Program-made: the position numbers and the translations under genes | In this document: positions 37,875 through 42,804 of the stretch, in pieces | Numbering within the stretch: position 1 is the first letter of the stretch | How the letters are laid out: the number at the start of each line of letters is the position of its first letter | Notes under the pieces: generated by a model | Databases searched by the model: none | Seen by the model: only the letters and a program-made list of their open reading frames with translations | What the model was told of the DNA's origin: nothing | NCBI GenBank assembly: GCA_013215095.1 | Contig: JABSPM010000028.1 | Location: 1-64,000, forward strand | Reading direction: 5' to 3' | From: Flavobacteriaceae bacterium | GTDB taxonomy: Bacteria; Bacteroidota; Bacteroidia; Flavobacteriales; Flavobacteriaceae | Length of the DNA stretch: 64,000 nt

Positions 37875-38885
37875 TTATTCTTTTATAGGGATATATAGTT
37901 CTGTAATCCAATCTGAAGGATTAGGAAAATCCTTCGGGTCATTTATGTAAATTTCAAAAGGTTTGAGTTCCGATTGTTCTAGAGCATTATCTCTAATGTA
38001 CTTTTGAGCGGCGGTCCATGCTGCTATGCGTTTCGTGTAATTCCCTTTTAAAATTGTTTTTAGAGCTTTTGTATGTGGGATGTAGGCGCAGAGAATACCG
38101 CTATCTTCTTTTGTGTCAACTTCTGTGTTAACAGATAATCCGTTGCTCATAACAAATGTGCTATCCGCAATATTCATGTTTTGATAGACAGTTAATGGTA
38201 TGCCCTTTACAGGAATATTATAAGACATCATATACCTAGCAATACTGCTGTAATGTTCTTTCATTTTTTGACTAATATTAGCGCTATTGGCATTTGTGGT
38301 TTTGTAGAGATAGTAACCGCCACCATAGCTTTTAATTCCTGTAATATTAATCTCGTATTTATGCATGCTTTCTAGAATTAAGTGTTCTAATTTCTCTAAA
38401 CTACGCTCAAAATTAGGACCAACCATTTTATCCATTCCGCCAGCAATAAGCGCAAAAAATTTCATCATGAAAGTCATTTTGTTTGATGTCATTCTTAATG
38501 TGATTTTATGGTCTTTTTCAAAATTCCAATAGACATGAGATATAGGTTGATTTTCAAACTGTAATTCGTGGTGGATTGAATCGTGAGGCGAAATCATTAT
38601 CGTTTTAATCTTTACTGTTCTGTCTTTTCTCTTCCAGCTATAAGAACTGTCAATAGGTGTGTTTTGTGTTGAGCATGATACATTGAGGCTTGAATCTTTT
38701 TCAATCCAAGGCGACCAATTGTCCCAGTTTTGGTAATCTCTAACTTGCTCAAATAGCAATTGCGTTGGCACATTAATAGTTCGACTTCGAGAGACATTAT
38801 ACGTGTTGGGTTGTACCGAAATATAGGTGCAGAACCCAATAATGAGAATTAATAATAGGAAGCAGATGTATTTAAAAACTCTCAT
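37875..38885 (-). CDS. Membrane-anchored SRPBCC/GyrI-like two-domain protein
   Basis: The 336-residue protein starts with a membrane helix or uncleaved signal (residues 4-23). A SRPBCC polyketide-cyclase-like domain follows (about residues 30-175, with QVRDYQNWDNWSPWIEKDSS). The C-terminal domain (about 185-336, GIPLTVYQNM to ELKPFEIYINDPKDFP) is GyrI-like, as in small-molecule-binding AraC effector domains. The combination suggests sensing or handling of a lipophilic ligand in the envelope. It lies directly upstream of crcB. Confidence 0.8.
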   Translation of the reverse strand: MRVFKYICFLLLILIIGFCTYISVQPNTYNVSRSRTINVPTQLLFEQVRDYQNWDNWSPWIEKDSSLNVSCSTQNTPIDSSYSWKRKDRTVKIKTIMISPHDSIHHELQFENQPISHVYWNFEKDHKITLRMTSNKMTFMMKFFALIAGGMDKMVGPNFERSLEKLEHLILESMHKYEINITGIKSYGGGYYLYKTTNANSANISQKMKEHYSSIARYMMSYNIPVKGIPLTVYQNMNIADSTFVMSNGLSVNTEVDTKEDSGILCAYIPHTKALKTILKGNYTKRIAAWTAAQKYIRDNALEQSELKPFEIYINDPKDFPNPSDWITELYIPIKE

Positions 38886-39014: not shown

Positions 39015-41063
39015 ATGACATTAAAAATAGGTATAACATCATTAGTTTTAGCCGCTACGATGTTTTCTTGTAAGCAAGAGCAAGTTCAGGAAGATAAAAA
39101 AATTAAAGAAGAATTGGTAGAGATGAAAGCAGAAGGGTTTAATCATATGGTTGAACAATTCGCGGATATTAAGCTGTTGAGATACCAAATCCCTGGTTTC
39201 GAAAATTTAACTCTAAAAGAGCAAAAGTTAGTCTATTATTTAACCCAAGCAGGATTGGCTGGCAGAGATATTATGTGGGATCAAAATTATAGACACAATC
39301 TTAAGATTAGAAAAGCACTTGAGCATATTTATACAAGTTATGAAGGCGATAAGACATCGGAAGATTGGTTGGCTTTTGAGGTGTACTTAAAGCGTGTCTG
39401 GTTTAGTAATGGAATACACCATCATTATTCTAATGATAAGCTCAAGCCAGAATTTTCTTCAGATTATCTAAAAACAGTATTAACCGCAACCAAAACGGTT
39501 TTAGAAGGGGAAGCCTTTGATGTTATTTTTAATGATAAAGATGCAAAAAAAGTTAACCAATCAAAAGATGTGGATAACGTAGCCTTGTCTGCGGTTAATT
39601 TTTATGGACCTCAAGTTACAAATGCTGATGTTGAAGCATTTTATAAAAAGAAAACATCTCCAAATCCAGACCAGCCATTATCGTATGGATTAAACTCTCA
39701 ATTAGTAAAAGAAAATGGAATGTTAAAAGAGCGCGTATATAAATCAGGAGGTTTATATGGTACTGCAATAGACCAAATTGTAAAATGGTTAGAATTAGCC
39801 AAAGGTGTTGCTGAGAATAAAGCACAAGGTGACGCTTTAGGCTTATTAATTCAATATTATAAAACGGGCGATTTGCAAACTTGGGATGATTATAATGTAG
39901 CTTGGACAGCTGCTACAGAAGGAAATATTGATTATATTAATAGTTTTATTGAAGTGTATAATGACCCTTTAGGGTATAGAGGTTCTTATGAATCTATTAT
40001 CCAAATTAAAGATTTTGATATGTCTCAAAAAATGGCGGTTCTGTCTGAAAATGCACAATGGTTTGAAGATAACTCACCATTAATGGATGCGCATAAGAAG
40101 AAAAATGTTGTTGGTGTAACCTATAAAGTGGTAAATGTTGCTGGTGAATCAGGGGATGCCTCGCCTAGTACGCCAATTGGAGTGAATTTGCCAAATGCAA
40201 ACTGGATTAGAGCTGCGGTTGGTAGTAAGTCTGTATCTTTAGGAAATATTATATTTGCTTATAACAATGCAGGCGGCTCAGGGAGATTAAAAGAATTTGT
40301 GCACGACCAGGAAGAGCATGATTTAGAGACGAAATATGGGCAATTAGCTGACAAATTACATACAGCCTTACACGAAGTCATCGGACATGCATCTGGGCAG
40401 TTAAACCCTGGAGTAGGTGAGACTAAAGAAACCCTTAAAAACTACGCCTCTACTTTAGAAGAAGGAAGAGCGGATTTGGTAGGACTTTATTATTTATATA
40501 ATTCAAAAATACAAGAACTAGGTTTAGTTGATGACTGGAAATCTGTAGGAAAAGCAGCATATGATGGTTATATTAGAAATGGATTGATGACGCAATTAAT
40601 TCGTTTAAATCTTGGAGATGATGTTGAGGAAGCACACATGCGTAATAGACAATGGGTGAGTGCTTGGGTATTTGAAAAAGGAAAAGCGGAAAATGTGATT
40701 GCAAAAGTAACTCGTGATGGAAAAACATATTTTAATATTAATGATTATGATAAGTTGCACGATTTATTTGGACAATTATTAAGAGAGACACAACGTATCA
40801 AATCTGAAGGGGATTTTGAAGCTTGTCAGACCTTAGTTGAAGGGTTTGGTGTAAAAGTAGATCAGGCTATTCATGCTGAGGTATTGGAACGTAATAAGCA
40901 ATTTAAATCGGCACCGTATAGCGGTTTTGTAAATCCCGTGTTAGTGCCAACGACCAATGTGTCTGGAGAAATTATGGAAATTAAAGTCATGCAGCCAATA
41001 TCTTTTGAAAACCAAATGTTAAGTTATTCTGATAAATATAATTTTTTGCCAGAGGAGAATTAA
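39015..41063 (+). CDS. Dipeptidyl peptidase III (M49), lipoprotein
   Basis: Zinc metallopeptidase that removes dipeptides from the N-terminus of oligopeptides. The 682-residue protein has the M49 zinc motif HEVIGH at 453-458 and the second motif EEGRAD near 482-487. It begins with a lipoprotein signal, lipobox FSC (Cys19), so it is lipid-anchored rather than cytosolic. The fold spans the rest of the chain. It is a single gene with its own terminator. Confidence 0.93.
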   Translation: MTLKIGITSLVLAATMFSCKQEQVQEDKKIKEELVEMKAEGFNHMVEQFADIKLLRYQIPGFENLTLKEQKLVYYLTQAGLAGRDIMWDQNYRHNLKIRKALEHIYTSYEGDKTSEDWLAFEVYLKRVWFSNGIHHHYSNDKLKPEFSSDYLKTVLTATKTVLEGEAFDVIFNDKDAKKVNQSKDVDNVALSAVNFYGPQVTNADVEAFYKKKTSPNPDQPLSYGLNSQLVKENGMLKERVYKSGGLYGTAIDQIVKWLELAKGVAENKAQGDALGLLIQYYKTGDLQTWDDYNVAWTAATEGNIDYINSFIEVYNDPLGYRGSYESIIQIKDFDMSQKMAVLSENAQWFEDNSPLMDAHKKKNVVGVTYKVVNVAGESGDASPSTPIGVNLPNANWIRAAVGSKSVSLGNIIFAYNNAGGSGRLKEFVHDQEEHDLETKYGQLADKLHTALHEVIGHASGQLNPGVGETKETLKNYASTLEEGRADLVGLYYLYNSKIQELGLVDDWKSVGKAAYDGYIRNGLMTQLIRLNLGDDVEEAHMRNRQWVSAWVFEKGKAENVIAKVTRDGKTYFNINDYDKLHDLFGQLLRETQRIKSEGDFEACQTLVEGFGVKVDQAIHAEVLERNKQFKSAPYSGFVNPVLVPTTNVSGEIMEIKVMQPISFENQMLSYSDKYNFLPEEN

Positions 41064-41092
41064 GTACCTTAATAAATCGAAATAATGAAAAT

Positions 41093-41123
41093 GGCACACG
41101 AATCAGTGTGCTGTTTTTTTTTT
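41093..41123 (+). terminator. Rho-independent terminator after dipeptidyl peptidase III
   Basis: GCACAC / GTGTGC stem around a six-base loop, followed by TG and about ten T residues. It lies 30 bases after the stop. Confidence 0.88.
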
Positions 41124-41255
41124 AACCAATACTAATATAAAATTAAAATTATACCATTTCTACAATGATTTGAATTTCAATACTTTAGCTTACTGAAAAT
41201 CTATCTTTTTTACTAGTAAAATCTGTCTAAATATTAATCGAACTTAGGTTAATAA

Positions 41256-41325
41256 GAGCCGTATGATGGGACTGTCACTTACGGTTCTGTAAGGTTTGGG
41301 GTGAAATTCCCCTTACCTACTCGAC
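41256..41325 (+). mobile_element. Group II intron 3'-end relic (domains V and VI)
   Basis: Bases 41256-41288 fit a group II intron domain V: GAGCCGTA pairs with TACGGTTC through one G-U pair, the catalytic AGC triad is present and a short upper hairpin follows. Bases 41289-41316 form a second hairpin (GTAAGG to CCTTAC) like domain VI. The sequence then reads CTACTCGAC, with an A seven bases from a possible 3' splice site ending in AC. No reverse transcriptase frame and no domains I-IV were found upstream, so this is a truncated relic. It sits 130 bases after a terminator. Confidence 0.75.
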
Positions 41326-41394
41326 AATTTACCTTTTGTGATATTTAAATTATGAATGGCTCATATTTTAGTTTTTTTTAATTAAGACATCGCA

Positions 41395-42804
41395 TTATCT
41401 ATCTAAAGACTTAATGTATTGTGTGGGAGTGACCTGAAACCGTTTCTTAAATACTTTATTAAAAGTAACTTTATTATTAAACCCAACTTTGTATGCAATA
41501 TCTATGATGGTTAACTTATTGTCCCCTTTATTTTTAATTATTTCTACAGCTTCATCAAGCCTAAATTTATTCATTAATTCAAAAAAATTCATATTAAAGT
41601 GCTCATTAATGATTTGAGAAGTATTATGCCTCGAAGTTCCTAATCGCTCGGATAACATAGTTAAACTTACACCTTCTGTTTTATATATTTTATCATCTTC
41701 CAGAATTTCCAATAATTTATCCCTAAGTTCCATGGAATAGTTTGGTGTTAAACTAGAGGTTTTATACTTGAATAAATTACCAGGATCTACAACCAACCTC
41801 ACTTTTCCTTTAAATATTTCAGGCTGTGCATAACTTATATAAGAGACATAAAATACTAAAGCGACCATTACTATAATTTGCAAATGAAAAAAGATGGGGA
41901 AATCAAAATACCCGGCGGTGGTGGCGGAATATAAGACAAACGTAATGATGTATAATACAAACATCCCAATGATATTTCTTTGCCATAGAAACTCATGTTT
42001 TCTTTCTTCTTCTACTTCTTTATTTACATCCGTTTTGTGTAATTTATAAGTTAAAAAGCCATATATAAGTAATGATAGTAACTTCCCCCAAAAAATAAAT
42101 TTCGCTTCTTTACTCAAAACATCATCCATATTAAACATGATTAGAAATTTCTCATGTGTACTTAATACATAAAATGGTATTAAATATAGTAACATCACAA
42201 CCGCAGGTATAAAATGACAAATATCCCGAATTCTTAAGGTGTAACCAGAGATAATTGTCTTGAAATATAAATACATTAAAGGACCATATAAGAATGTAAA
42301 TGTTGTAGATGCTAATAAAGTATTTGGAAAAAGATATTGGCAATTAATGAGGTATATACTCAAGTGAATGATAAACAAAGAATGTAGCATCAAGAAAAGA
42401 CTCATTAACAAGTTACCGCTCCGTTTTATGTCTCTTTTAATATTTAAAATGAGGCATAAGAACAACCCTAAAAAACCGGAAAACAAATACAATAATGCTA
42501 AAAAACTAAAACTTGGCTGATATCTTACCTTGAAATTTTGATACGTATCGGTATGCGCAATTTTTTTAAAAAAATGATCATTAATTAACGATAGATCATG
42601 AGTTTTGCGTATATATTTTTTAGCATAATATAACGCTTTTTCTGGATAAACACTATCTGCATAAATTTCAGCATATTTTCTAAAATCAAGAATAGAATCA
42701 TGCTGTACTTTTTTAGACCAACTGTGGTCATCGCTTGCATCAACCTTAAAACAGACTACACAAAAAAACATCAAAAAGACGAGAAGAAGTTTGTAAATTT
42801 TCAA
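41395..42804 (-). CDS. Membrane-bound AraC-family regulator
   Basis: The 469-residue protein has a signal-like start, a short periplasmic helical part (about 25-95), seven or so membrane helices (about 98-330) and a cytoplasmic AraC-type DNA-binding domain (about 365-469). The latter includes ITIMLSERLG-like and VGFNNKVTFNKVFKKRFQVTPTQYI segments, the second being the classic AraC C-terminal helix-turn-helix. It probably senses something in the membrane or periplasm. No target is evident; the M28 peptidase gene lies 500 bases upstream in the same direction. Confidence 0.85.
   Translation of the reverse strand: MKIYKLLLVFLMFFCVVCFKVDASDDHSWSKKVQHDSILDFRKYAEIYADSVYPEKALYYAKKYIRKTHDLSLINDHFFKKIAHTDTYQNFKVRYQPSFSFLALLYLFSGFLGLFLCLILNIKRDIKRSGNLLMSLFLMLHSLFIIHLSIYLINCQYLFPNTLLASTTFTFLYGPLMYLYFKTIISGYTLRIRDICHFIPAVVMLLYLIPFYVLSTHEKFLIMFNMDDVLSKEAKFIFWGKLLSLLIYGFLTYKLHKTDVNKEVEEERKHEFLWQRNIIGMFVLYIITFVLYSATTAGYFDFPIFFHLQIIVMVALVFYVSYISYAQPEIFKGKVRLVVDPGNLFKYKTSSLTPNYSMELRDKLLEILEDDKIYKTEGVSLTMLSERLGTSRHNTSQIINEHFNMNFFELMNKFRLDEAVEIIKNKGDNKLTIIDIAYKVGFNNKVTFNKVFKKRFQVTPTQYIKSLDR

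What the first reader, a model, noticed from the sequence alone, without database searches (positions are those of the whole stretch)
41256..41325. Isolated group II intron domain V/VI relic behind a terminator
Domain V, a domain VI-like hairpin and a plausible 3' splice end are readable, but no reverse transcriptase or upstream intron domains exist. A 5'-truncated insertion from incomplete reverse transcription would leave this. It stands 130 bases after the terminator of dipeptidyl peptidase III; some group II introns target terminators, but the class of this one cannot be decided by eye.
Basis: partly seen in the sequence, partly recalled or inferred. Interest (0 to 1): 0.55.

Follow-up and report, generated by a model that had tools for sequence, protein, structure and literature searches.

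The report
Group II intron stub beside IS remnant
A dead 76-base tail of a bacterial self-splicing intron lies behind a peptidase gene, and its front was most likely cut off by a transposable element whose end still touches it; this is ordinary genome decay, not a working part.

Summary
Window 41250-41325 is domain V + domain VI and the 3' end of a group II intron (RF00029, 38.0 bits, E 4e-6, just under the 40-bit gathering score). It is up to 86-87% identical to domain V/VI of related introns in other genomes of its family. No domains I-IV and no reverse transcriptase are present. The proposed cause, incomplete reverse transcription, is not the best fit. Window 41164-41249 is about 90% identical to the end of an IS982-family insertion sequence with two larger copies in the same genome. 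The outermost base of its terminal repeat is 41249, and intron homology begins at 41250. The simplest history is an IS982 insertion about 6 bases before domain V, then deletion of the intron's front and most of the IS. The stub is decayed: two bases are missing from the domain V tip, and an internal-loop base is changed. The genome holds two full-length ORF-less relatives and several fragments, some lacking the 3' end. The IS-cut history is inferred, because no close relative shows the uncut site. Interest of the window feature is low; the ORF-less intron lineage is the more interesting by-catch.

The parts
41250..41325 (+). Group II intron relic: last ~6 nt before domain V, domain V (about 41256-41288), domain VI and the 3' intron end (...CTACTCGAC)
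   Evidence: RF00029 38.0 bits E 4.2e-6; up to 86-87% identity to domain V/VI of related introns in family genomes; alignment of 17 distinct copies, window included
41256..41288 (+). Domain V hairpin; outer stem kept, tip short by two bases (hexaloop GGGACU in the predicted fold, where most relatives have a GAGA tip), internal-loop G changed to T
   Evidence: Fold; alignment columns 23-24, 26 and 36
41164..41249 (-). Remnant of one end of an IS982-family insertion sequence (about 86 bp), terminal repeat ending outward at 41249; the transposase would have read leftwards, away from the intron
   Evidence: 89-90% identity to C90 and C27 copies; terminal repeat 1 mismatch in 22; transposase fragment of the C90 copy matches NF033520 IS982 at 95.9 bits and PF13612
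39015..41063 (+). Dipeptidyl peptidase III-like peptidase (M49), the left neighbour
   Evidence: PF03571 E 1.7e-39
41092..41124 (+). Terminator-like hairpin and T-run behind the peptidase gene
   Evidence: Read directly from the sequence; not scored by a terminator scan
41395..42804 (-). AraC-type regulator gene, the right neighbour
   Evidence: PF12833 and PF00165; no tblastn match in the 80 peptidase loci

Best explanation
This is a dead stub of a group II intron. A small group II intron of the same family as the ORF-less copies elsewhere in this genome once stood here (shown: homology; inferred: that it was longer). An IS982-family element inserted about 6 bases upstream of domain V, or made an adjacent deletion ending there (shown: IS end and intron sequence abut at 41249/41250; inferred: order of events). 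Later deletion removed most of the IS together with the intron's front and its 5' exon junction, and point and indel decay blunted domain V. It has no function as an intron now (inferred).
For: RF00029 match. Homologous domain V/VI in other family genomes and in the own genome. IS end 41164-41249 with two larger IS982 copies in the genome. Terminal repeat outer end at 41249, intron homology from 41250: window TAATAAGAGCC against TAACAAGAGCC in L004 and TAATAAGAGCC in a G124 copy. Outer end of the repeat supported by C27, C90, C87 and both ends of the C69 derivative. Loss of two bases at the domain V tip; an A changed or lost that 16 of 16 other distinct copies keep. Other copies in the genome are cut at either end. 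[quoted passage not shown]
Against: No relative with the undeleted site is at hand: the genus search held only this genome, and none of the 80 relatives' peptidase loci shows the intron, the IS or the AraC gene there. The second IS end is absent from the window, so the rest of the IS history is unseen. No target duplication can be read. An IS insertion exactly at the edge of an already 5'-truncated intron gives the same picture.
Confidence: 0.85

Rival explanations
1. 5'-truncated retrotransposition: reverse transcription from the 3' end stopped just past domain V, leaving the stub; the IS end beside it came later or by chance.
For: Only the 3' end is kept, as expected for a product of target-primed reverse transcription.
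Against: The break coincides with the outer base of an IS982 terminal repeat, which needs an extra coincidence. Fragments lacking the 3' end exist in the same genome, so truncation in this lineage also comes about by DNA rearrangement.
Confidence: 0.08
2. Functional RNA or terminator co-opted from the intron end.
For: Stable hairpins (z -3.6).
Against: The hairpin stability is inherited from domains V/VI. Domain V is decayed at its tip and internal loop. The site is not shared by any of 80 related loci. No T-run follows directly.
Confidence: 0.03
3. The 3' half of a split intron that works in trans with a 5' half elsewhere (for instance the 3'-less copies on C96 or C36).
For: 3'-less copies of the same family exist in the genome.
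Against: Domain V has lost its conserved tip. No cognate reverse transcriptase/maturase was found in the genome, while the same query matches in 4 of 4 other genomes tried. No exon pair to join is apparent.
Confidence: 0.01

Closest known systems
Group II intron domain V/VI, Rfam RF00029
   Same: Full model length aligned, outer domain V stem, 3' end CTACTCGAC
   Different: 38.0 bits, under the gathering score of 40; domain V tip two bases short; no domains I-IV, no reverse transcriptase
ORF-less and IEP-bearing introns of the same family in the own genome (C76, C89) and in family genomes (G219, G143, G050 and others)
   Same: 75-87% identity across domain V/VI
   Different: Those keep RF01999 domains I-IV (C76, C89) or an open reverse transcriptase frame (G219, G143); the window keeps only the last 76 bases
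IS982-family insertion sequences (NF033520)
   Same: About 86 bp of one end with the terminal repeat
   Different: No transposase and no second end left in the window
Group IIC introns inserted after terminators or in attC sites (PMC4424553, passages read)
   Same: The stub stands behind a terminator-like hairpin of the peptidase gene
   Different: An IS remnant and other sequence lie between, and the original 5' exon is gone, so no target claim can be made

Membership tests
Group II intron (as sequence relic) | Domain V recognised by covariance model | tested here: met
   RF00029 E 4.2e-6, 38.0 bits, but below the 40-bit gathering score
Group II intron (as sequence relic) | Homologous to bona fide group II introns | tested here: met
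   76 nt up to 86-87% identical to domain V/VI of introns with an open reverse transcriptase frame or, at 76-78%, with domains I-IV in the own genome
Group II intron (as working element) | Domains I-IV and a 5' intron end | tested here: not met
   None in the window; own-genome searches hit other contigs only
Group II intron (as working element) | Intact domain V (triad, bulge, tip) | tested here: not met
   Tip two bases short, internal-loop G changed; AGC in the outer stem kept. The roles of these positions are recalled, not tested
Group II intron (as working element) | Cognate reverse transcriptase/maturase in cis or trans | tested here: not met
   No match of this family's enzyme in the own genome; the same query matches in 4 of 4 other genomes, though in G161 at only 34% identity. 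Three maturase-domain relics of another group II class exist
Group IIC / terminator-targeting class | Insertion directly after a terminator or attC hairpin | tested here: inconclusive
   5' exon junction lost to the IS and deletion
IS982-family insertion sequence (remnant at 41164-41249) | Terminal repeat shared with copies that carry an IS982 transposase | tested here: met
   1 mismatch in 22; C90 transposase fragment NF033520 95.9 bits over 115 aa, below the whole-protein cut-off of 130
IS982-family insertion sequence (remnant at 41164-41249) | Transposase gene and second terminal repeat | tested here: not met
   No ORF of 60 aa or more between 41064 and 41394; only one terminal repeat in the window at up to 4 mismatches

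The most novel reading that the evidence does not exclude
The stub is one of at least seven remains of a non-autonomous, ORF-less group II intron lineage in a genome without a detectable cognate maturase, a lineage whose relatives enter one arm of attC-like palindromes. The window copy would be a leftover of such spread, later cut by an IS982 deletion. A working trans-splicing half is not formally excluded but very unlikely.
Probability: 0.3. Interest if true: 0.4.

Novelty: new member of a known kind. Interest (0 to 1): 0.15.

Why it matters
[quoted passage not shown] It shows that a 5'-truncated intron should not be read as incomplete reverse transcription before the flank is checked for other mobile elements. 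It also points to an ORF-less intron family in the bacterial family of this genome. The review whose passages were read (PMC4424553) calls ORF-less group II introns rare in bacteria and says they nearly always live in genomes with related introns whose proteins may act in trans.

Tried and rejected
Gathering-threshold Rfam scan of the window: nothing; the relaxed scan was needed. Other relaxed Rfam matches in the same stretch (ceN93, a plastid domain V model, STnc40, 6A, FTX_1, SCARNA7) are below their gathering scores; the plastid one is the same domain V, ceN93 overlaps it, and the rest were treated as chance. Genus search: only the own genome is held, so no sister species could show the uncut site. 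80 loci around related peptidase genes: no intron or IS sequence at the site (best DNA match 21 bases, E 0.02) and no match to the AraC gene or to the next gene beyond it; the upstream neighbour (37875-38885) was found in 70 of 80; flanks were limited to 4 kb and some contigs end earlier. No inverted repeat of 10 bases or more was reported by the repeat finder in 41060-41460 with a 7-base seed, so no palindromic target is visible at the window site. The closest solved enzymes to a relative's reverse transcriptase include 7uim and GsI-IIC RT (6ar1); this was not taken as a class assignment. Papers: five searches; of PMC4424553, PMC3552965 and PMC3522654 only passages were read; the other papers were seen in listings only. 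The searches were not meant to prove that the ORF-less family is unpublished, and no such claim is made.

Rows left out of the 17-row alignment: 18 non-window copies were supplied and two identical ones dropped; other loci that are overlapping duplicates, and the G219 copy with an insertion in domain V, were not supplied.

Full report
What is there. Window 41250-41325 (+) carries domain V, domain VI and the 3' end of a group II intron. Rfam at the gathering cut-off reports nothing in the window, but the relaxed scan of 41064-41460 gives RF00029 over its full length at 41254-41325 with 38.0 bits (gathering 40) and E 4.2e-6. The stretch folds far better than its shuffles (z -3.6, 0 of 200).

Relatives. 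The own genome (3.07 Mb, 118 contigs, completeness 99.77) has three more RF00029 matches at E <= 1: C76, C89 and C64. C76 and C89 are introns of about 640-665 nt with a domain I-IV match (RF01999, 66.1 and 76.1 bits) and too short for a reverse transcriptase gene. Further parts lie on C96 (two 5' parts; the second runs off the contig end, which explains its missing 3' part; the first loses homology and continues as other sequence), C64 (3' part) and C36 (about 100 bases of the 5' part). In 299 genomes of the family, 12 (own included) match the C89 intron at E <= 1e-5. Against the window's 76 bases, the copies in those loci reach 86-87% identity; the own-genome copies reach 76-78%. Some relatives carry an open reverse transcriptase/maturase (G219, G143, G010, G072, G176 loci; TIGR04416 over its cut-off for the two tested).

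The 5' break. Window 41164-41256 matches two other places in the genome at 89-90% (C27, C90), which continue into a transposase gene. The C90 fragment matches NCBIfam NF033520 (IS982 family, 95.9 bits; cut-off 130 for the whole protein, only 115 aa given) and Pfam PF13612. The terminal repeat begins ACCTGAG in C27, C90, C87 and at both ends of a short C69 derivative, with differing sequence outside; C97 has a poorer match with 4 mismatches. In the window the outermost base of that repeat is 41249. Intron homology runs from 41250: TAATAAGAGCC here, TAATAAGAGCC in a G124 copy, TAACAAGAGCC in C76. The two mobile elements therefore meet to within a base, about 6 bases before domain V. An IS982 insertion into the intron, or an IS-adjacent deletion ending in it, explains this at once. 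The rest of the IS and the intron's front are gone, so a further deletion must have followed; that order is inferred.

Decay. In an alignment of 17 distinct domain V/VI copies (window plus 16), the window departs at eight columns that are at least 75% conserved: two bases missing and an A-to-G at the domain V tip, an A-to-G in the distal stem, G to T in the internal loop (15 of 16 others have G), and three columns at the start of domain VI. By a leave-one-out count other own-genome copies depart more (C76 10, C89 13, C64 11; window 8), so the whole own-genome lineage looks decayed and the count does not single out the window copy. The missing tip is particular to it among these rows, apart from one base missing in C64.

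No maturase. A reverse transcriptase of this intron family from G219 matches in 4 of 4 other genomes tried (in G161 at only 34% identity) but not in the own genome; a second query was also empty. The three maturase-domain matches of the own genome carry stops or broken frames and lie beside a different domain I-IV family (RF02001).

Neighbourhood. The left neighbour is a dipeptidyl peptidase III-type gene (PF03571) and the right neighbour an AraC-type regulator. Among 80 related peptidase loci none has a match to the AraC gene within the fetched flank, while the gene upstream of the peptidase is found in 70 of 80. The gap where the stub lies is thus at or near a point where gene order has changed, in keeping with IS-mediated rearrangement, though this does not prove it.

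Comparison. Passages of a review (PMC4424553) say that most bacterial group II intron copies are truncated or inactivated, many amid other mobile DNAs, and that class IIC introns insert after terminators or at attC sites. Passages of a survey in Enterobacteriales (PMC3522654) report 55 distinct fragmented copies and list 135 distinct copies. The window feature is one more such fragment. Its original target cannot be read, so the class question stays open.

Verdict. Real, correctly recognised as a domain V/VI relic; cause most likely an IS982 insertion and deletion rather than incomplete reverse transcription; ordinary. The more interesting thread is the ORF-less lineage listed under things noticed.

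Noticed in passing
L004 916-1580 (C76), L011 940-1580 (C89), L140 (C96), L012 (C64), L141 (C36): An ORF-less group II intron lineage (RF01999 + RF00029) with two full-length copies and several fragments in a genome where no cognate reverse transcriptase was found.
   Followed up: partly
5' flanks of L004, L011, L126 (G219); 3' flanks of L004, L011, L109, two copies of L098, second copy of L118, L126: These introns, with or without a reverse transcriptase, appear to sit in one arm of a long imperfect palindrome, with CGTT 7-8 bases after the intron end in the seven listed: an attC-like target, by inspection and single-sequence folds only. Other copies, such as L105-L107, L110 and the window, lack it.
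   Followed up: partly
G050, contigs C8, C40, C27, C1, C32: Seven short matches to only the last ~36 residues of the intron reverse transcriptase, in a genome with one longer open copy (C60): looks like internally deleted, non-autonomous introns that spread.
   Followed up: no
L001 (C78), L002 (C91), L003 (C37): Three broken maturase-domain remains next to RF02001 matches: a second, different group II intron class decaying in the same genome.
   Followed up: partly
L013 1508-1550 (C69): A 43-base element made of little more than the two IS982-type terminal repeats facing each other, a minimal deletion derivative.
   Followed up: no
G219, reverse complement of L126, domain V near 2565: Domain V of an intron with an open reverse transcriptase frame is split by a GC-rich hairpin insertion of about 25 bases.
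   Followed up: no
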